Positions 3,015 through 17,781 of a stretch of 21,010 nucleotides of DNA are shown here, one piece after another. The notes under the pieces were generated by a model. That model made no database searches. It was given only the letters and a program-made list of their open reading frames with translations, and was not told where the DNA came from. A program made the translations under genes and the position numbers. The stretch lies in IMG/VR virus record IMGVR_UViG_3300021141_000068, positions 1-21,010 of that record; one strand, given 5' to 3'. Position 1 is the stretch's first letter. Each line of letters starts with the position of its first letter. This stretch comes from a virus.

Positions 3015-3035
3015 ATATAAATAGTATGTAATTTA
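3015..3035 (-). promoter_or_regulatory. TATTTATA-type promoter element upstream of 2757-2999
   Basis: On the coding strand TACATACTATTTATATG precedes the start codon at 2999; the TATTTATA core is 3023-3016. A 21-nt stretch beginning exactly at the TAA stop of the polymerase-like gene is repeated without change at 20438-20418. It belongs to a set of at least six such intergenic elements in the window. Promoter function is inferred from position and recurrence. Confidence 0.5.
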
Positions 3036-4337
3036 ATAAACGGCTAAGTTAGCTAGACTAGACCCTAACTTTGTCTTGATAGGAAACTTTGTAACATCAA
3101 TAGCTTTTGGTATAACCGTCCCTAATAAATAGTCTAGTTCTGACAAAGGAACGTCAAATAAGATACTATCATATGTGTATAGTACTGGTTTTGTTTTTAT
3201 TCCTATTAATCCTAGAAGAATTGGTTGAAGCATTAACACATTAAACTCAGTCTCATACATCTGAATAAAATAGTTGAATAATGTGTACTCGCTTATGTCT
3301 TGGTAATTAGCAAGTATTAGTCTCCTACCCGATATTGGACTCTCTATATAACCATGCTCGTTGCCATACACCCATAGCTGCCTAGCTAGATTACTTGCCG
3401 CTTGGAAGAATGGAACGTGAAGGTATTGTTTGCTGATCCCACCATATATTTGTCTGAAGGTAGCTTCCTTGGCTGAAGCGATCTGTGTCTTAGTTGGATT
3501 ATCTGTATTGTTGTAATGTTTAGCTAAATGCTCGTACACATCGTCAGTCCCGAAGTCATACCCAACTAGTGATGCAATCAATCGTGGGTGGTATGCGTTA
3601 AAATCAATCTCCACCAAGCTACCATCCTCAAACCTACTAACGAAACAATCCCTTGTACCGTCTTCCTTATTCAAGGCAGCAAAGTTAATTCCATCAAACC
3701 TATTACTCGGACGTCCAGTTGTTGTGTAGTAGTTGTACTGGGTGTAGCTTTTATCTCCTACCTTTGAAAAACTCTTTCCAAATCTTTCATCAAAAATAGA
3801 ACTATCAATTTGGATTCCATTCTTTTCGATCATATAGAAAGAACTTACAAGCCTTTGCTGATAGAATGGTAAACCAGGTTGCTTTTCTTCTATAAAGACC
3901 TTGCTGAATAACTCGTAGGCAATGCTCTCGTGTTTTTGTAAACTAACTAAAGATCCTAGTACACCACAATCGGATAGGTATCGTGCATAGTGGTTTATAA
4001 TGGAAGGGGTCTCAAAGTTGCAACTTTTGTTTGTCTGAAGATAGTATTGAAGTTGCACATCTATAAAGCTATCGGTTTCATAACCTGCGTACTTGAATAT
4101 GATAGTATCGTAGCTATAAACTTTGCACCGGTGTAGGAAGTTAAAATCACCTACTTTGAATATTGCGTCTGGGTGACTCTTACAAACTGAGTATGTTTGC
4201 TTTGTCTTAGTGTCGATTAGGATAACAGCGATAATATCACTCTCAACTCTGTGTCTCCTATTATCCTGCAGTACAGGATATACGAAGAAGGTTCTATCGT
4301 ATAGAGATTCTAATTGCTGCTTGTTGTCTATTATCAT
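3033..4337 (-). CDS. Short, divergent family A DNA polymerase
   Basis: 434 residues with the order of family A polymerase motifs. YTTTGRPSN...INFAALNKEDGTRDCF (204-232) matches the Pol I TxTGRLSS...NLQNIP...RxxF block. Motif A is LVEIDFNAYHPRLIASL, with catalytic D245. Motif B is KEATFRQIYGG, with K290, F294, Y298 and G299 at the Pol I K758/F762/Y766/G767 positions. YIESPISGRRL (330-340) matches the Pol I YVET-GRRR segment. Motif C is LYTYDSILFDV with D390. Residues 77-101 (YDTIIFKYAGYE...IDVQLQYYLQ) resemble the C-terminal half of a 3'-5' exonuclease domain, but I see no clear DxE, so proofreading is probably lost. Odd: motif C is YDS rather than HDE, motif A has H250 in place of the family Glu, and the motif B Arg is missing. 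Length is below typical phage PolA (about 600-700). It could be the main replicase or an accessory polymerase. Confidence 0.75.
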   Translation of the reverse strand: MIIDNKQQLESLYDRTFFVYPVLQDNRRHRVESDIIAVILIDTKTKQTYSVCKSHPDAIFKVGDFNFLHRCKVYSYDTIIFKYAGYETDSFIDVQLQYYLQTNKSCNFETPSIINHYARYLSDCGVLGSLVSLQKHESIAYELFSKVFIEEKQPGLPFYQQRLVSSFYMIEKNGIQIDSSIFDERFGKSFSKVGDKSYTQYNYYTTTGRPSNRFDGINFAALNKEDGTRDCFVSRFEDGSLVEIDFNAYHPRLIASLVGYDFGTDDVYEHLAKHYNNTDNPTKTQIASAKEATFRQIYGGISKQYLHVPFFQAASNLARQLWVYGNEHGYIESPISGRRLILANYQDISEYTLFNYFIQMYETEFNVLMLQPILLGLIGIKTKPVLYTYDSILFDVPLSELDYLLGTVIPKAIDVTKFPIKTKLGSSLANLAVY

Positions 4338-4367
4338 GCATACAATATACTAATTAAATTCCAATAA

Positions 4368-5042
4368 TCAAAATCTTGTGAAGCGAGCAAATTCAGTAAA
4401 GCTTTTTACTGAGTATAAGATGCTTGGAACTACCTTCTGAGCTTTATATAGTGCTAGTTCGTTTTGTTGTGCAAGGACATCGTAGGATCCAACCAGTCTC
4501 CAAGTAACACTTACAAAGGAGTAAAGACCATCATCTATACCACCAAACAAGCCTAGTAACTCCCACTGTGAGTTGTTTATCTCTATCGCATAGCTAGAAT
4601 CATCACCTCTCTTCTGCACAAAGTATCGACTGTCCTGACCCACCTCATAAGCGGCATCTGTTGGCTCATATATGTAAGGAACTGGATCTACGAAACTCAA
4701 CACTGCTATATCAAATGATTTTATCCTTTCGTAATCGTATTGATATTTTTCTAGATATATTCTTCTGAGTCTCTTTCTACTTTCGGTATTCTTTGGAGCT
4801 ACAATTATAAGCTTTGGATTGATAATGTCAGGATCTCCAGTTTGATTAACATCATCGCCAGCGTTTAGGGGAGCTGGTCCAGTGAACGCTGCGATTCCTT
4901 CTATATGATACTCACCCACATACTCTTCACCATCTAAACTAAACTCACCACCCTTAGTGTAAAGGTGTGTTAGTGTCTTTCTTCGTGCAGAGAAACTACT
5001 AATATTGCTTGCTCTATTTTTCTTTTTATTTAGACTTGCCAT
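4368..5042 (-). CDS. Putative virion/baseplate-associated protein with YTKGGEF motif
   Basis: 224 residues. I recognise no named family, but residues 27-47 contain YTKGGEFSLDGEEYVGEYH, a short motif of the form YTxGxEFxLxGxxYxGxYH that I have seen in structural proteins of environmental T4-like phages (from memory, not searched). The N-terminus is basic and Ser/Asn-rich. A central segment (INPKLIIVAPKNTESRKRLRRIYLEKYQYDYERIKSFDIAVLSF) and a C-terminal beta-rich part follow. There is no signal peptide or membrane span. It begins 2 nt after the hub gene's stop and is the last gene of the tail block before the replication genes. A baseplate or tail-fibre attachment role is inferred from context only. 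Confidence 0.55.
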   Translation of the reverse strand: MASLNKKKNRASNISSFSARRKTLTHLYTKGGEFSLDGEEYVGEYHIEGIAAFTGPAPLNAGDDVNQTGDPDIINPKLIIVAPKNTESRKRLRRIYLEKYQYDYERIKSFDIAVLSFVDPVPYIYEPTDAAYEVGQDSRYFVQKRGDDSSYAIEINNSQWELLGLFGGIDDGLYSFVSVTWRLVGSYDVLAQQNELALYKAQKVVPSILYSVKSFTEFARFTRF

Positions 5043-9240: not shown

Positions 9241-11829
9241 TTATCTTACGTTTGATGTATTTAGGCCTAGTCGAACTATCTCTCCTACCTTTCTTCCGTC
9301 CATATTAATATCTCCACCCTTAGATGCAACCGATATTAGTTGATCCAACTTATCTGCTATTACTTGCATCTTATCCTCTTCTTCGCCGCCTCCGCCACCG
9401 CCCATCAATCCTGATAGTGCTGGAGCTACTGCTGCTAATCCTATTAATGCTCCAATAATTGGAAGTGCCATTAAACCACTCAGTGCCATCATACTCAAAC
9501 CTCCTGCAATTCCTAGTAACGATGCTCCGACCAATGCTAGTCCTGGACCAGCTGCTCCCAACGCTGATAGACTACTAACCATAGATCCGAGTGCATCCAT
9601 TTGAGCTATTAAACTTATTGCAGTCAATCCTGGTACCATTAAGGCTAATCCCGCTCCTGCTAATAGTAGACCTGGGAATGCAAATAATGCTGCTGCTCCA
9701 AGTGCCATCATTCCAACTCCCAACAGCAACAAGTCTCCCGACATAGGTGCTAATTGTAAAAGTGCAGGTGTAAATAGATCAAAACCTTTTGCAATTTCTT
9801 GGATAGCTTTACCTAGTATATATAAAGCGCCTGCCATTAATATCATTGCTGCAGCTCCTGCTAGGATTGCTATTGCTCCAACTCCACTAGTCATGATTGC
9901 TCCAACTAAAGCTAACGCTCCAACTAAAGCTAGCATACCTGTGATTGCCTTTCCTATTGAAGACCACTCAACTGTAGCAAACTCTTGAGCTGCTTTTGCA
10001 AATATAAACACTGCTGCTGCTGTTAAGACTAGTGCTGCGGCACCTGCTAGTAATTTTCCTGGATTGATCTTCTCTATTGATTTAGTTAATCCACCCGTAC
10101 TCTTACCTGCTCCTGCTGGAACTTTGGTAGCTGCCCCTGCAGCTTCTCCCATCTTACCTGCTGCTGCTCCTGCTGCTCCTAGTCCTTTTGCTGCTGCTCC
10201 TCCAGCACCAACTACTCCTTTAGCTGCGGCTGCTCCTCCACTCATAGCTCCTTGAGCTTTCGTCCAGAGCATATGTGCTTTTTCTGCTACCCACTGTGCT
10301 TTTTGTTTTACCCAATGTGCTGCCTCTATTGCAAAACCTTTTACTTTTTGCAAGTTACCATCCACTAAGAACTGAGTCCCTGATAATATCAACTCTGCAT
10401 TTTCTTTCATGAATCCAACTGCTGCTCCTCCGTACTCTATTAAACCACCCAAAGCATTTTCAGCCAAGTTTGTTCCTTCTCCAAAGTACTTGTTAGACTC
10501 CTCTTGTGCGTCAATAGACTTTTGCAACTCTTCTACTGACATCCCAGTCGCTTCAGCTAATGCCTTTTTCTGCATTACGTTCATTTTATCGAACTCTGCT
10601 GATCCACCTATATTCTTTAGTACCTCTGCTGTAGATCCTGCTAAATCTCCATTTAAGGCTAATTCCCTTGCTTTATCTAGATTAATCTCCTTACCTAACA
10701 ATACAGATGCTTCCATCTGTTTGTTAATACTGTCTTCGAAATTTAACAACCCATCAGCCATCTTAGATGCTGTAGCTATCTCAACTCCCATTTTATGCAA
10801 CTCGATCGCTGCTTTACCAAATCCTTCAGCTCCACCCTTACTATACAAAGCCATAGTACCAGCGTTAGCTGCCATATCTTTAAATACCTTACTACCAGCT
10901 ATACCCTGAGCTTCTGCCAAGTGTGCTGTATGCTCCATCGCAGCTGCTGCTGTTTCTGAAGTCTCTCCTGGTAGTTGTGATAGTGAGGCGTTAAGCTTCA
11001 TAGCCTCCTGTCCGGAAATACCTAGGTGATGTGCCATCGATCCAAGCTCGTTAACAGTCTCACTACTTAGAGCGTTGACGTTACCAAACTCTTGCACTAT
11101 TCCTTCCATGACACCCTTTGTGTCAGATAAGCCTAACATAGACTCAAAAGACATTCCTGTGAATTGAGCTGATACAGCTTGTCCTGCACTAAGTCCCATC
11201 TCACGGAAACCCTCAAAGCTTTCAACAGCTTTGTCTAGCTTTTCTATTATAGCATCAGCAAATAACGCTTTCGCCATTTCTGGTGTTCGAAGTTGATCTA
11301 TTAGCTCATCTGTAATTCCAATACGAGATTTAAGCTTTGCGTTTATCTCTTCAAACTTCTCCTTAACCTCATCCTGCTGCTGCTGAAGTGCTAATTGATC
11401 TTCTTCAATCTTTAACTGCTTAGCACGCTTTTCAGTCATCGCATCTATGATGGCTGGCATTTGTCGCATCTGATCTAATTGACCTTGCAACTCTATCCTC
11501 TCTAGGTTGGATAGGTTTTTATTTCTTAACTTACCTTGAAGCGATTGTATAGAATTAGCATTCTCTTGCTTAGCCATTTCAGCTAAGACTCTGAGCTCAG
11601 CTTCTCTAGTGCTAATACCTTTCGTCAGTGATTGGTTATATACTTTTTCATTAACCTCCCTTGCCTTCTGACCTTTAACAAAATCAGACATTTGAGTAGT
11701 CATGTCTTGCATAAAGTTTGCTCCCGAGAATCCTTCCTTAGATCCCATACCTATCCCCTTAGCAATTACGTCTGCAATTTGGGAGGCTAGATCTTTTGGT
11801 ATGTAATCTTCTGACTTAGGAGCTGCCAT
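9241..11829 (-). CDS. Tail tape measure protein
   Basis: 862 residues, the longest protein of the tail block and in the expected place between the small tail genes and the baseplate genes. It has a charged, coiled-coil N-terminal third (about 85-175, rich in Glu/Lys/Gln: LRNKNLSNLERIELQGQLDQMR..., EEDQLALQQQQDEVKEKFEEI), a mixed helical middle, an Ala/Gly-rich hinge (about 530-580), and strings of hydrophobic segments (about 590-810, e.g. LLAGAAALVLTAAAVFIF) that could insert in the host membrane during DNA delivery. A Gly/Glu stretch GGGGGGEEEDK precedes the C-terminus. Tape measures set tail length; the common 0.15 nm per residue rule suggests about 120-130 nm, as an inference only. Start ATG is 2 nt after the preceding stop. 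Confidence 0.88.
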   Translation of the reverse strand: MAAPKSEDYIPKDLASQIADVIAKGIGMGSKEGFSGANFMQDMTTQMSDFVKGQKAREVNEKVYNQSLTKGISTREAELRVLAEMAKQENANSIQSLQGKLRNKNLSNLERIELQGQLDQMRQMPAIIDAMTEKRAKQLKIEEDQLALQQQQDEVKEKFEEINAKLKSRIGITDELIDQLRTPEMAKALFADAIIEKLDKAVESFEGFREMGLSAGQAVSAQFTGMSFESMLGLSDTKGVMEGIVQEFGNVNALSSETVNELGSMAHHLGISGQEAMKLNASLSQLPGETSETAAAAMEHTAHLAEAQGIAGSKVFKDMAANAGTMALYSKGGAEGFGKAAIELHKMGVEIATASKMADGLLNFEDSINKQMEASVLLGKEINLDKARELALNGDLAGSTAEVLKNIGGSAEFDKMNVMQKKALAEATGMSVEELQKSIDAQEESNKYFGEGTNLAENALGGLIEYGGAAVGFMKENAELILSGTQFLVDGNLQKVKGFAIEAAHWVKQKAQWVAEKAHMLWTKAQGAMSGGAAAAKGVVGAGGAAAKGLGAAGAAAGKMGEAAGAATKVPAGAGKSTGGLTKSIEKINPGKLLAGAAALVLTAAAVFIFAKAAQEFATVEWSSIGKAITGMLALVGALALVGAIMTSGVGAIAILAGAAAMILMAGALYILGKAIQEIAKGFDLFTPALLQLAPMSGDLLLLGVGMMALGAAALFAFPGLLLAGAGLALMVPGLTAISLIAQMDALGSMVSSLSALGAAGPGLALVGASLLGIAGGLSMMALSGLMALPIIGALIGLAAVAPALSGLMGGGGGGEEEDKMQVIADKLDQLISVASKGGDINMDGRKVGEIVRLGLNTSNVR

Positions 11830-11831
11830 GC

Positions 11832-12167
11832 TTAACTAAAGTATTTTGCAAATGGACCTTTTCGTACATCGTACGCTAGTGTGTTCATAAATGCTTGTGG
11901 ATCTTTTTTAATCAAAGCAGTAGCTTTGGACATGAAATCCTTCTCACTCATGCCAAACTTTTTATGCAAACCCTTAAACTTTGGATCCGACATTAGCCTA
12001 GAGTATTGGTAATTCTTTACATTATCAAAATGCCCCTTTACAAAGTTGCTAACCTTATCGAGCATCCAGTTAACTACCGTCTCCTCAAGCATACCCTCAG
12101 CCATCTTTTTCTTGGCCAATCTCCGTATCTCTTGTCGTAGGGTTGTTTCAAAGTTTTGATTTCTCAT
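11832..12167 (-). CDS. Small basic tail-region protein, 111 aa
   Basis: I start this at 12167 (MRNQNFETTLRQEIRRLAKKKM), giving 111 residues, because a TATTTATA element lies at 12189-12182 and the alternative ATG at 12197 sits upstream of it, inside the terminator tail. The protein is helical and lysine-rich, with MLEETVVNWMLDKVSNFVKGHFDNVKNYQYSRLM and an end KGPFAKYFS. I recognise no family. The LRQEIRR start resembles the IRQEI start of the protein at 2757-2999. Its stop codon is 2 nt from the tape measure ATG, so it is cotranscribed and probably coupled with it. A tape-measure-associated or tail-assembly role is inferred from position. Confidence 0.6.
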   Translation of the reverse strand: MRNQNFETTLRQEIRRLAKKKMAEGMLEETVVNWMLDKVSNFVKGHFDNVKNYQYSRLMSDPKFKGLHKKFGMSEKDFMSKATALIKKDPQAFMNTLAYDVRKGPFAKYFS

Positions 12168-12194: not shown

Positions 12195-12224
12195 CAAAAA
12201 AGAAAGCCAACGCTTGGTTGGCTT
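12195..12224 (-). terminator. Intrinsic terminator after the 61-aa ORF
   Basis: On the minus strand AAGCCAAC - CAAGC - GTTGGCTT forms an 8-bp stem, followed by TCTTTTTTGG. It begins at the stop codon of the 61-residue ORF, so it closes the gp26-family transcript. Confidence 0.85.
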
Positions 12225-12408
12225 ATCTTCTAGATTTTGATCTTATTTCAGCAGCTTGTTGCTCTTGCTGTTCGTTTTCTTTTTTGCGGATGTCAACCAG
12301 TTTTAAATAAAAGTACCTTCGAAGGTGGACTGGAAGACAGTATAGTTCTGTATAACTCCATCCCATTTTTCCATAGTACATTAGATCAAAAATCTGATCT
12401 TGCATCAT
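12223..12408 (-). CDS. 61-aa tail-assembly-chaperone-like ORF, possibly a frameshift extension
   Basis: 61 residues: MMQDQIFDLMYYGKMGWSYTELYCLPVHLRRYFYLKLVDIRKKENEQQEQQ. The FDLMYYG...W...YxLPVHxRRxFYxKL pattern resembles the short proteins that follow gp26-family genes in T4-like environmental phages. The frame is open upstream only to 12441, and that 33-nt extension contains the second half of a T7 run at the end of the gp26-family gene. It therefore may be made both alone (two ATGs directly after a hairpin) and as a C-terminal extension of the upstream protein by a +1 or -2 shift. In many tailed phages the two ORFs between tube and tape measure are tail assembly chaperones joined this way. 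The basic, Gln/Glu-rich C-terminus is helical. Confidence 0.7.
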   Translation of the reverse strand: MMQDQIFDLMYYGKMGWSYTELYCLPVHLRRYFYLKLVDIRKKENEQQEQQAAEIRSKSRR

Positions 12409-12439
12409 GGGTCTATAACTAGACCCCAGGCCAAAAAAA
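12409..12439 (-). promoter_or_regulatory. Candidate programmed ribosomal frameshift site
   Basis: The upstream gene ends TTT TTT TGG CCT GGG GTC TAG. The T7 run is 12439-12433. Six nt later a perfect 7-bp hairpin GGGTCTA-GTTA-TAGACCC (12426-12409) begins, and the upstream stop codon lies inside it. A +1 slip re-pairs tRNA-Phe perfectly (TTT to TTT) and enters the frame of the 61-residue ORF, giving a 356-residue fusion (287 + 8 + 61). A -1 shift gives only about nine extra residues before TGA. The alternative is stop-start reinitiation. Confidence 0.55.
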
Positions 12440-13294
12440 TCCTACACCAATGGGCAATGCCATCTTTTCTTGCTCAAATTGACAGTGAGGACATTCGAAT
12501 CCAAAGGTTGTATCGATATCTGGAGTAACTTCTTTAAGGTACTTGCGTAATTCCAAAGAGTCACGTGATAGCATACTATCAACGAACTTATTGATAATTC
12601 CCTTATCCTCGTTTCCGTCTACAGCCACAATAAGGTGTTTCAATCGTGTAGATAGTTCTGGATCAATTCCAGAAACTCTACTTAATTTTTTATATCCCTT
12701 TACCGCTTCTTCAATCTTTTTCTCATCACCATGTGTTAAGAACTTTAAAGTAAGCTTGTTTTTTCCAATTGGAAGAGTGAATGTGTGAGTTGTTTGTCCT
12801 TTCTCAAAGCCTTCCCAGTTAATCGTTTTATCTTCAAAGTCTCCTAAATCAATTACGTGTGTTGACTTCTCTCCACAGCTTGGACATGGAATCTCTACCT
12901 CATAATCCTTACCATAAGCTAGAATACGAGCTGCAATAAAGATTGCATTTTTATCTACTGTAAGTAAGTCGTTGTAATTAATCTTAGTAACAATAAGTGA
13001 TTGTAATAGCTTATCGATTACTACTCCTTGTTTGATCAAGTTCTGAGATGATAAAATATCTTCCTCTTTAGCAGTCATGTATTTCATTTCAATCTTTCCT
13101 TCTGACAAAGGATGTCCTTCTGGGTAGAACCAACCTTTTGATGGTAATTCGATTACCTCTGTAGGTACGATGGATGGTGATGAATTGACTTCTAGTGTTC
13201 CCGTGTTAAGGGATTCTGCCATGAACTTGGCTTTGATTTCTTCGTCTGAGAGCATCTTTCCTGCTGGATACTCATCATTTACAACTTTTGACAT
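12419..13294 (-). CDS. gp26 / T4_baseplate-family tail assembly protein with zinc ribbon
   Basis: 291 residues. Residues about 47-110 carry the family signature IELPSKGWFYPEGHPLSEGKIEMKYMTAKEEDILSSQNLIKQG-VVIDKLLQSLI, which I recognise as the T4 gp26-type baseplate family (Pfam T4_baseplate). Two CxxC pairs, CPSC (137-140) and CPHC (268-271), would form a zinc ribbon. T4 gp26 is needed for baseplate hub assembly; the position between tail tube and tape measure is that of tail assembly chaperones in other phages, so a chaperone role is likely. It follows a terminator and a TATTTATA element 34 nt upstream of its ATG. Its 3' end overlaps the candidate frameshift site leading to the 61-residue ORF. 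Confidence 0.78.
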   Translation of the reverse strand: MSKVVNDEYPAGKMLSDEEIKAKFMAESLNTGTLEVNSSPSIVPTEVIELPSKGWFYPEGHPLSEGKIEMKYMTAKEEDILSSQNLIKQGVVIDKLLQSLIVTKINYNDLLTVDKNAIFIAARILAYGKDYEVEIPCPSCGEKSTHVIDLGDFEDKTINWEGFEKGQTTHTFTLPIGKNKLTLKFLTHGDEKKIEEAVKGYKKLSRVSGIDPELSTRLKHLIVAVDGNEDKGIINKFVDSMLSRDSLELRKYLKEVTPDIDTTFGFECPHCQFEQEKMALPIGVGFFWPGV

Positions 13295-13400: not shown

Positions 13401-13889
13401 TTAGTATTCTAATACGCAGTAATCAACTCCTAGTGTTAAAGATATCTCAACTGGTGTCTCTGTTGACCAGTCCATATCTCCAAACGTTGCAGTTTTGATA
13501 TATGCACCTTTTACTTTCCAGTTTTCTACTTTATCTCCTACTGGTCCAAGTACGAAGATATCAAAATCTCTTTTGTAGAAATCTGCATACCCATCACGAC
13601 CTGTTACTGATTCGTGAGATACACGTACCCATTCCATTACTGATTGAGCTCCTGATGGTACGATTGCGTCGTACATAGAGATTGTAATGTCATTCCACTT
13701 ACACTTCCCTTTCATCTTGCGGATAATGTTAATGTGGTCTAATACAACTTCTCCACACTCAATACCTGGACGAGACACTTTCTTACACAAGAATGCTGGA
13801 ATGCCTTCTACAGATAAGATGAATCTATTCTGTACCTTAGGCTCGTAAGGTGTGTAGAAGATTTCGTTATTTTCAATTAAATTTGCCAT
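13401..13889 (-). CDS. 19: Tail tube protein (gp19-like)
   Basis: 162 residues, the same size as T4 gp19 (163). The N-terminal region has YTPYEPKVQNRFILSVEGIPAFLCKKVSRPGI; the middle is IIRKMKGKCKWNDITISMYDAIVPSGAQSVMEWV; the end is WKVKGAYIKTATFGDMDWSTETPVEISLTLGVDYCVLEY. The signature RF-specific-G-P pattern, W-D-I-T-M-D segment and the strand near the C-terminus match the T4 tail-tube family. It polymerises as stacked hexamers inside the sheath. It is encoded 19 nt downstream of the sheath gene, with no Shine-Dalgarno (leader ATATAAAAGACAG). The strong terminator that follows allows sheath and tube to be made at high level as a pair. Confidence 0.93.
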   Translation of the reverse strand: MANLIENNEIFYTPYEPKVQNRFILSVEGIPAFLCKKVSRPGIECGEVVLDHINIIRKMKGKCKWNDITISMYDAIVPSGAQSVMEWVRVSHESVTGRDGYADFYKRDFDIFVLGPVGDKVENWKVKGAYIKTATFGDMDWSTETPVEISLTLGVDYCVLEY

Positions 13890-16674: not shown

Positions 16675-17781
16675 CTAACTTAAACAAGTCGTTTCATATA
16701 AGTGTTTGTATGATGATAAAAATAAATCAATTGATTTAGTCTCAAATCTAGTTTGTATAGTCTTTGCTAGGCTGTGTAATTCTGGAAGTGTCATGGAATA
16801 ATACAACATAATCTTTTGTTTAAGGTCGTTTACGTCGTCCTGGACTATAAATGGATAATCTTCTCCGAATAATTCTACGGTGCCTGTGTTAGCGCCTATG
16901 ATAGGGAATACTCCTAATTGCATAGACTCTACATGACTGTATCCAAACGGTTCATACAACGAATTGCCGAACATAAGTGATATTTCTGAAAAGAATTGTT
17001 TTTGATTGTCAACTCCCCGCAATTCACCTTTTGCTTGTATTCTAGGATTCTTTAAGAAACTATCAATCATTGCGACTGTAAACAAGTCTCCATATCCTCC
17101 GTGTATTGTTAATGTCATATCTAACATAGAATCGATTGCAGTAATTGCTGCTAAAATTCCTTTTCTATACACTAATCTAGAAAATATACCAGTATGTTTT
17201 GTTTGTTTAATATTTGCATATTGTATAGGAACTGGATCTATACTATTATAAATAACACGAGTTTGTTTGGTTTTAATACCTAATCTTTGTGCATGAGCTA
17301 ATTCATTTTCCGTTAAAAATACAGTAATATTGCTTCGTTCTATAAATTCAACTTGATTCTTAGCAGATACATCATAATACTGCATAAATGATTTTATTGA
17401 ATCTTTTGCATCATGAAAATATGTATCAATACATTCACGATAACATTCTTGTTCTACTAATTGTAAAGAATGTACCGTTGTTATGATGGGTATTGTAATT
17501 GACCTAAATATTTGCATGATGAAGTCATCATCAGATTCAGTTACTCCCCAATTCCAATGAACTACATCCATAGTATTCAATAAAGCAATAGCGTCATCAA
17601 TACTAGATTCATCTAATATAAAAGTAAAGTTTGAGTTCGTTTCTTTGCCGTGTTCTGGCTTAAAGAAAAATACGGGTTGGATTGTTGAATTGTTTGTCAA
17701 CCCGTATATAAGTTTAAATAAAAAATTTCCAATACCGCCATCTTGTGTGATAGGGTTATTAGATACATAACCAATTTTCAT
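16675..17781 (-). CDS. GT4-type (GT-B fold) glycosyltransferase
   Basis: 368 residues, normal for a GT-B glycosyltransferase. The N-terminal domain begins MKIGYVSNNPITQDGGIGNFLFKLIYGL, with the Gly-rich acceptor loop (GGIGNF), VVHWNWG and IITTVHSLQLVEQECYREC. The linker is TRVIYNSIDPVP. The nucleotide-sugar domain starts GIFSRLVYRKGI and has SLYEPFGYSHVESMQLGVFPIIGANTGTVELFG, the E-x7-E motif (EPFGYSHVE) that binds the sugar nucleotide. It likely transfers a sugar from an NDP-sugar to a virion protein, host glycan or DNA base; the target is not shown. It lies 15 nt after the tail-fibre stop, in the same transcript, so virion or fibre glycosylation is the simplest inference. Codon use is very AT-rich, possibly from transfer. 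Confidence 0.85.
   Translation of the reverse strand: MKIGYVSNNPITQDGGIGNFLFKLIYGLTNNSTIQPVFFFKPEHGKETNSNFTFILDESSIDDAIALLNTMDVVHWNWGVTESDDDFIMQIFRSITIPIITTVHSLQLVEQECYRECIDTYFHDAKDSIKSFMQYYDVSAKNQVEFIERSNITVFLTENELAHAQRLGIKTKQTRVIYNSIDPVPIQYANIKQTKHTGIFSRLVYRKGILAAITAIDSMLDMTLTIHGGYGDLFTVAMIDSFLKNPRIQAKGELRGVDNQKQFFSEISLMFGNSLYEPFGYSHVESMQLGVFPIIGANTGTVELFGEDYPFIVQDDVNDLKQKIMLYYSMTLPELHSLAKTIQTRFETKSIDLFLSSYKHLYETTCLS

What the first reader, a model, noticed from the sequence alone, without database searches (positions are those of the whole stretch)
12403..12444. Candidate +1 (or -2) programmed frameshift joining the gp26-family gene to the 61-aa ORF
Seen: T7 run at 12439-12433 in frame as TTT TTT TGG, six-nt spacer, then a perfect 7-bp hairpin (12426-12409) that contains the stop codon of the first gene. 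The +1 frame is closed upstream by TAG at 12444-12442, so its only overlap with the first gene is the short stretch holding the T7 run, and it continues into the 61-aa ORF. Known: the two genes between tail tube and tape measure are often tail assembly chaperones linked by frameshifting (-1 in lambda, -2 in Mu, and +1 shifts are known in Listeria phage PSA). A downstream hairpin more often stimulates backward slips, so -2 is also open. Frameshifting in a T4-like gp26 family would be notable and would argue that gp26 is a chaperone homologue.
Basis: partly seen in the sequence, partly recalled or inferred. Interest (0 to 1): 0.78.

Follow-up and report, generated by a model that had tools for sequence, protein, structure and literature searches.

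The report
Conserved +1 frameshift in tail chaperone
A T4-like phage gene for a tail-building helper protein is read in two ways, because ribosomes slip forward one base at a run of Us near its end, giving a short and a long protein; over 200 related phage sequences keep this slip, and the direction of slip is a new twist on a known kind of switch.

Summary
Observation confirmed. T7 (12439-12433), six-base spacer, 7-bp hairpin (12426-12409) and +1 relation to the 61-aa ORF are all present. In 214 distinct homologous junctions, ORF2 lies in the +1 frame in 206. All 203 confident +1 loci keep at least one UUU_Y codon at the site. The +1 frame is under protein-level selection from the slip onward, and 116/203 have no start codon in its first 27 codons. 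Broken T runs (TTTCTTT, TTTCTATT, TTCTTTT) rule out transcriptional slippage and -2 there. The hairpin covaries, but only among near relatives. Best reading: +1 slippage of peptidyl-tRNAPhe on UUU_U makes a short and a long tail assembly chaperone. The long form aligns end to end (L029 fusion) with the profile that holds T4 gp51; T4 encodes the two forms as paralogues gp26 and gp51; cyanophages use -1 at U_UUU_UUC (57/57); PVC-type injection loci carry an in-frame fusion. T4 gp26/gp51 as chaperones, and poly-T -1 sites in T4-like phages, are already published according to papers citing Vladimirov 2022. I found no report of the +1 branch, the 5'-U avoidance (T in 1/203), the covarying hairpin or the nested +1-to--1 switch. 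No protein-level evidence exists.

The parts
12419..13294 (-). T4 gp26-family gene (PF12322 / phrog_150), 291 aa; unshifted short chaperone form
   Evidence: Pfam E 9e-14; phrog_150 E 1e-17; lies between tail tube (13401-13889) and tape measure (9241-11829)
12433..12439 (-). T7 slip site read UUU UUU U(GG)
   Evidence: 190 of 203 confident +1 loci keep UUU_U at both codons and all 203 keep at least one UUU_Y; Phe codons TTT at 121/124 and 122/124 against 78% elsewhere in the gene
12440..12440 (-). Non-U base immediately 5' of the U run (A of GGA)
   Evidence: T at this position in 1 of 203 loci; 1 of 137 where the codon family allows T, about 83 expected
12427..12438 (-). TTTTTTGGCCTG, dual-coded: 0-frame FFWP, +1-frame FGL
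   Evidence: L095 loses WP (TGG GTT) but keeps +1 GL as GGG TTG
12409..12426 (-). 7-bp hairpin with 4-nt loop, candidate stimulator
   Evidence: Covariation on 33 near relatives: 24 both-side-change cells against 8.1 +/- 5.1 shuffled, 0/500; slid controls 4-6
12419..12421 (-). 0-frame stop codon TAG of gp26
   Evidence: Sequence
12223..12435 (-). ORF2 in the +1 frame, C-terminal extension of the long form; first ATG at 12408
   Evidence: +1 reading FFGLGSSYRPMMQDQIFDLMYYGKMGW...; 40-44% of codon changes synonymous in +1 against about 20% expected and 8-9% in frame 0
12204..12224 (-). Terminator-like stem-loop plus T run directly after ORF2
   Evidence: 2 found in the region against 0.9 in shuffles

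Best explanation
[quoted passage not shown] Most ribosomes read UUU UUU UGG CCU and stop at TAG 12421-12419, giving the short gp26-like protein. A fraction slip forward by one base: peptidyl-tRNAPhe re-pairs from UUU to the overlapping UUU (UUC in some relatives), and translation goes on in the +1 frame as ...FF-GLGSSYRPMMQDQIFDL..., giving a long protein of about 356 aa. In the window's near relatives a hairpin six bases downstream probably stimulates the slip. By analogy with lambda G/GT, the short and long forms together coat the tape measure and recruit tail tube subunits. Shown by comparison: frame relation, slip-site constraint, coding in the +1 frame, covarying hairpin, relation to T4 gp26/gp51. 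Inferred: which of the two UUU codons is used, the efficiency, the role of the hairpin, and the chaperone function in this phage.
For: Frame: 206 of 214 distinct loci in +1; 86 of 88 clusters at 70% identity. Site: 203/203 keep a UUU_Y tetranucleotide, which Atkins et al. 2016 (PMC5009743) call especially prone to +1 shifting in bacteria. Coding: synonymous changes enriched only in the +1 frame just after the slip. No own start: 116/203 loci lack ATG/GTG/TTG in the first 27 +1 codons, 142 lack ATG. L095 loses the 0-frame WP but keeps the +1 GL. 5' base: T in 1/203, where a T would otherwise create a -1 heptamer U_UUU_UUU. Hairpin covariation. Fusion logic: T4 gp26 ends at KEFFELL* and T4 gp51 is the same domain plus a C-terminal tail; the fused product of relative L029 aligns 6-276/282 with phrog_150, the profile that T4 gp51 fills 13-280 and that S-PM2 gp26 and gp51 tile as 5-232 and 240-281; chromosomal PVC-like loci (sheath, gp19 tube, Pvc16, AAA) carry an in-frame PF12322-DUF6760 fusion at the same FF. 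The two best VIA structural matches are 3klu (YqbN, an XkdN-like chaperone from my own knowledge) and 2ob9 (HK97 tail assembly chaperone), both weak.
Against: No peptide, reporter or ribosome profiling data. tRNAPhe in the P site followed by a common codon is not an obvious pause site, and the hairpin is missing in most distant relatives, so the stimulator there is unknown. In the window and a few close relatives an ATG follows the stop, so some separate translation of ORF2 cannot be excluded. RNAalifold found no consensus structure over all 33 aligned sequences. Structural matches to known chaperones are weak (Foldseek E 0.86; VIA Z 3.0-3.8). For the window itself the ORF2 part is not reached by the phrog_150 match.
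Confidence: 0.9

Rival explanations
1. -2 ribosomal frameshifting at the T7 run (Mu-like), which reaches the same frame.
For: T7 permits a -2 re-pairing of tRNAPhe from the second UUU, and a downstream hairpin usually favours backward slips (sequence).
Against: In TTT CTT TGG (7 loci), TTT CTA TTC (L004), TTC TTT TGG (L118) and TTC TTT CGT (L007) a -2 re-pairing has no cognate match while a UUU_Y +1 slip does. The 5' base is kept non-U.
Confidence: 0.03
2. Transcriptional slippage on the T7 tract makes mRNAs with one U missing or two added.
For: Homopolymer run of seven in most loci.
Against: Run broken to three or four Ts in about ten relatives that keep the +1 relation; seven is short for slippage; a covarying RNA hairpin suggests a ribosomal event.
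Confidence: 0.03
3. ORF2 is an ordinary separate gene translated by coupling or re-initiation from the ATG just after the gp26 stop.
For: ATG ATG at 12408-12403 in the window; ORF2 of Mel-JY01, SP-15 and immuto is annotated as a separate hypothetical gene; L008 seems to use TAATG coupling.
Against: 116/203 relatives have no start codon before the middle of the conserved domain; the segment between slip and ATG is under +1-frame protein selection; the frame relation is fixed.
Confidence: 0.03
4. The +1 slip takes place on the proline codon CCU two codons further on (as on Pro codons in Listeria phage PSA), not on UUU.
For: CCT is conserved in 125 of 127 clusters that have Pro there.
Against: Dual coding (0-frame P, +1 GL) explains CCT fully; L095 lacks CCT and keeps +1 GL; SP-15, LIS04, GXN1 and RM378 lack CCT but keep UUU_Y or a U run.
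Confidence: 0.03

Closest known systems
T4 gp26 / gp51 tail assembly chaperones (Vladimirov et al. 2022, known here only through papers that cite it)
   Same: Same PF12322 domain; short form plus long form with a C-terminal extension; same place next to the tape measure in relatives
   Different: T4 makes the two forms from two paralogous genes without frameshifting; here one gene is recoded by a +1 shift
Cyanophage and schizo-T-even gp26 with short gp51 (S-PM2, P-SSM2, KVP40-like ValKK3)
   Same: gp26-like gene followed by an overlapping small ORF homologous to the gp51 tail; slip at the same FF codons
   Different: -1 frame with U_UUU_UUC/U (57/57 cyanophage loci); preceding base always U, in the window's family almost never
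Lambda gpG/gpGT and other -1 tail assembly chaperones
   Same: Short and long chaperone from one locus between tube and tape measure by frameshifting
   Different: No detectable sequence relation; -1 at other heptamers
HSTV-2 tail chaperone and Listeria phage PSA cps/tsh
   Same: +1 frameshifting in tailed-virus structural or assembly genes (PMC5009743)
   Different: Unrelated genes; PSA slips on a proline codon CCC; the HSTV-2 site was not examined here
prfB (release factor 2)
   Same: +1 slip of a P-site tRNA on CUU_U, with UUU_U in a few species (PMC5009743)
   Different: prfB uses a stop codon in the A site and an upstream SD-like sequence; neither is seen here

Membership tests
PF12322 / phrog_150 (T4 gp26-gp51 baseplate hub chaperone family) | Profile match over the gathering score | tested here: met
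   52.1 bits against a cut-off of 24.5, E 9e-14; phrog_150 E 1e-17; 36/36 aligned members match phrog_150
Tail assembly chaperone (G/GT type) | Gene pair between tail tube and tape measure genes | tested here: met
   sheath, tube, gp26, ORF2, (109-aa ORF), TMP in order
Tail assembly chaperone (G/GT type) | Short form plus frameshifted or fused long form | tested here: met
   Comparative evidence only; protein not observed
Tail assembly chaperone (G/GT type) | Chaperone fold | tested here: inconclusive
   AlphaFold2 pLDDT 85; best VIA rows 3klu Z 3.8 and 2ob9 Z 3.0, rmsd 4.2-4.6, 79-86 residues
Tail assembly chaperone (G/GT type) | Binds tape measure and tube proteins, absent from virion | not testable with these tools
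   needs biochemistry
T4 gp51-type long form | Fused product aligns with the whole gp51-containing profile | tested here: inconclusive
   L029 fusion covers 6-276/282 of phrog_150, but the window fusion covers only 12-223
PF20546 DUF6760 | Match over gathering score 27 | tested here: not met
   Window ORF2 14.7-15.3 bits, L017 19.9 bits; the chromosomal fusion L188 reaches 28.6 bits
-1 slippery heptamer sites X_XXY_YYZ | In-frame heptamer with product in the -1 frame | tested here: not met
   Window 5' base is A, giving A_UUU_UUU; product frame is +1

The most novel reading that the evidence does not exclude
Within one chaperone family the direction of frameshifting is set by very few bases around the same two Phe codons: a non-U 5' base with UUU_UUU gives +1, a U 5' base with UUU_UUC gives -1. 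Lineages have switched direction while keeping the same short/long protein pair, as in the L158 clade (A_AAU_UUC, -1), which is nested inside the +1 family.
Probability: 0.55. Interest if true: 0.7.

Novelty: new variant of a known kind. Interest (0 to 1): 0.6.

Why it matters
Frameshifted tail chaperones are almost always -1. This adds a large, well-supported +1 branch in the T4 gp26/gp51 family, whose members reach the same short/long protein pair by +1 shift, -1 shift, paralogous genes or a single fused gene. It explains the remark in Sullivan et al. 2010 that cyanophage gp51 lacks the first 200 residues: they come from gp26. It corrects the annotation of ORF2 as a free-standing hypothetical gene, and it gives a natural alignment of hundreds of sites from which the rules of bacterial +1 slippage at UUU_Y, and of the choice between +1 and -1, can be tested.

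Tried and rejected
RNAalifold on 33 near relatives gave no consensus structure; named-pair counting was used instead. DUF6760 membership of the window ORF2 is below the cut-off. CCU as slip site was considered and rejected (L095). A search for PF12322 in 395 Bacteroidota genomes gave only four hits, three of them fusions. HMM comparison of T4 gp51's tail with the ORF2 profile alone is not significant; the link rests on phrog_150 and phrog_634. Vladimirov et al. 2022 is not held and could not be read. Near identity of related loci inflates raw counts; clustered counts are given. I first thought the T4 gp26/gp51 link was new and then found it was published.

Full report
What is there. The window is a 21-kb fragment of a virus contig. 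On the minus strand it carries sheath (16281-13909), tube (13889-13401), a gp26-family gene (13294-12419; PF12322, E 9e-14), the 61-aa ORF2 (12408-12223), a 109-aa ORF, and the tape measure gene (11829-9241). The gp26 gene ends GGA TTT TTT TGG CCT GGG GTC TAG, and the +1 frame from the T run reads FFGLGSSYRPMMQDQIFDLMYYGKMGW... into ORF2.

Is it conserved? I collected relatives from IMG/VR, GTDB genomes and phage records. In 214 distinct junctions a profile of ORF2 finds its homologue in the +1 frame in 206 and in -1 in 8. Clustering at 70% gp26 identity leaves 88 clusters, 86 of them +1. The commonest site is TTT TTT TGG CCT. Phe codons at the site are TTT in 121/124 and 122/124 clusters against 78% elsewhere in the same genes. 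These counts treat clusters as independent, which is only roughly true.

Where is the slip? Exceptions to T7 are informative: TTT CTT TGG (seven loci), TTT CTA TTC (L004), TTC TTT TGG (L118), CTT TTT TGG (L137), TTT TTT CAC (SP-15), TTT TTT AGT (LIS04), TTC TTT CGT (GXN1). Every one of the 203 confident +1 loci still has at least one UUU followed by U or C. Atkins et al. [quoted passage not shown] A -2 slip and transcriptional slippage are not possible, or not plausible, on the broken runs. CCT, though nearly invariant, is explained by dual coding; L095 has TGG GTT instead, losing the 0-frame Pro but keeping the +1 Gly-Leu.

Is the +1 frame translated from the slip onward? Among similar pairs of loci, 40% (site-to-stop spacing 18) and 44% (spacing 24) of codon changes in the first 17 codons after the slip are synonymous in the +1 frame; 8-9% are in frame 0; about 20% are expected. 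In 116 of 203 loci there is no ATG, GTG or TTG in the first 27 codons of the +1 frame, and 142 lack ATG, so the conserved domain cannot begin at its own start codon there. In the window itself an ATG ATG does follow the stop, so extra independent translation cannot be excluded.

A base that seems to set direction. The base just 5' of the run is T in 1 of 203 loci. In the 137 loci where the amino acid's codon family allows T, about 83 were expected. A U there would make the -1 heptamer U_UUU_UUU. In cyanophages, whose ORF2 homologue ('gp51') lies in the -1 frame, that base is T in 57 of 57 and the heptamer is U_UUU_UUC in all. The same -1 arrangement is seen in ValKK3, Cronobacter phage S13, Astolliot and phiN3. 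That the base causes the direction is an inference.

The hairpin. On 33 near relatives the seven pairs are formed in 84% of cells, with 24 cells changed on both sides against 8.1 +/- 5.1 in shuffles (0/500) and 4-6 when slid. It is missing in most distant +1 relatives: 40 of 105 loci with the same spacing have six or seven pairs. It is therefore a lineage-specific element, probably a stimulator.

A switch of direction. Seven distinct loci (L158, L194-L197, L199, L200) share AAT TTC TTC TGG CCT TCC CGG TAG with ORF2 in -1; the T run is lost and an in-frame A_AAU_UUC heptamer is present. In a gp26 tree rooted on cyanophages this clade (support 1.0) lies inside the +1 family. Support for its immediate sister group is low (0.32), but deeper nodes are at 0.84-0.98.

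What the two proteins are. T4 gp26 (208 aa) ends at KEFFELL*, and T4 gp51 (249 aa) is the same PF12322 domain (E 4e-52) with a C-terminal tail. Phrog_150 is filled 13-280/282 by T4 gp51 and tiled by S-PM2 gp26 (5-232) and S-PM2 gp51 (240-281). The frameshift fusion of L029 aligns 6-276/282; that of the window only 12-223. Two chromosomal loci in Bacteroidota (L188, L189) have PF12322 and a DUF6760-like tail in one reading frame, joined at the same FF, and a third (L187) has the same joined arrangement with an insignificant DUF6760 match; the locus around L188 holds sheath, gp19 tube, Pvc16 and AAA genes of a contractile injection system. T4 gp26 and gp51 are listed as hub assembly chaperones in PMC3004832. 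Papers that cite Vladimirov et al. 2022 say that T4-like phages carry a short and a long chaperone gene (PRFect preprint, PMC10274946) and that poly-T -1 signals exist in T4-like chaperone genes (PMC12846349). Sullivan et al. 2010 had noted that cyanophage gp51 lacks the first ~200 residues (PMC3037559).

Fold. An AlphaFold2 model of the window gp26 (pLDDT 85) has as its best VIA rows 3klu (YqbN) Z 3.8 and 2ob9 (HK97 tail assembly chaperone) Z 3.0. Both align to the same N-terminal part, and both scores are in the range where chance arrangements occur.

Verdict. The finding is right. It is a new, +1 variant of a known kind of switch, in a family already recognised as tail assembly chaperones.

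Noticed in passing
L158, L194-L197, L199, L200 (gp26 3' end): A clade nested in the +1 family has lost the T run and has ORF2 in the -1 frame behind an in-frame A_AAU_UUC heptamer, with a nucleotide-identical stretch around the site.
   Followed up: partly
L273 8150-8364 (S-PM2) and L274-L353: Cyanophage gp26 and the short 'gp51' overlap by a -1 relation with invariant U_UUU_UUC (57/57), which accounts for the missing N-terminal 200 residues of cyanophage gp51.
   Followed up: yes
L187, L188, L189: PVC-type contractile injection loci in Bacteroidota carry gp26 and the ORF2-like domain as one in-frame fusion at the same FF.
   Followed up: partly
L008 about 4230-4470 (LR756511): A jumbo phage relative has ORF2 in -1 with its own ATG overlapping the gp26 stop (TAATG), apparently without frameshifting.
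   Followed up: partly
12224-12204 and 13377-13353, minus strand: Terminator-like stem-loops flank the gp26-ORF2 unit on both sides, as if it were its own transcription unit apart from tube and tape measure.
   Followed up: partly
11832-12161, minus strand: 109-aa ORF between ORF2 and the tape measure gene with no family match.
   Followed up: no
3033-4337, minus strand: 434-aa ORF whose sequence reads like the palm part of a family A DNA polymerase but has no Pfam match, next to RecA/UvsX and gp32 genes and directly behind the tail module.
   Followed up: no
16675-17781, minus strand: Glycosyltransferase group 1 gene between the tail-fibre-like ORF and the sheath module.
   Followed up: no
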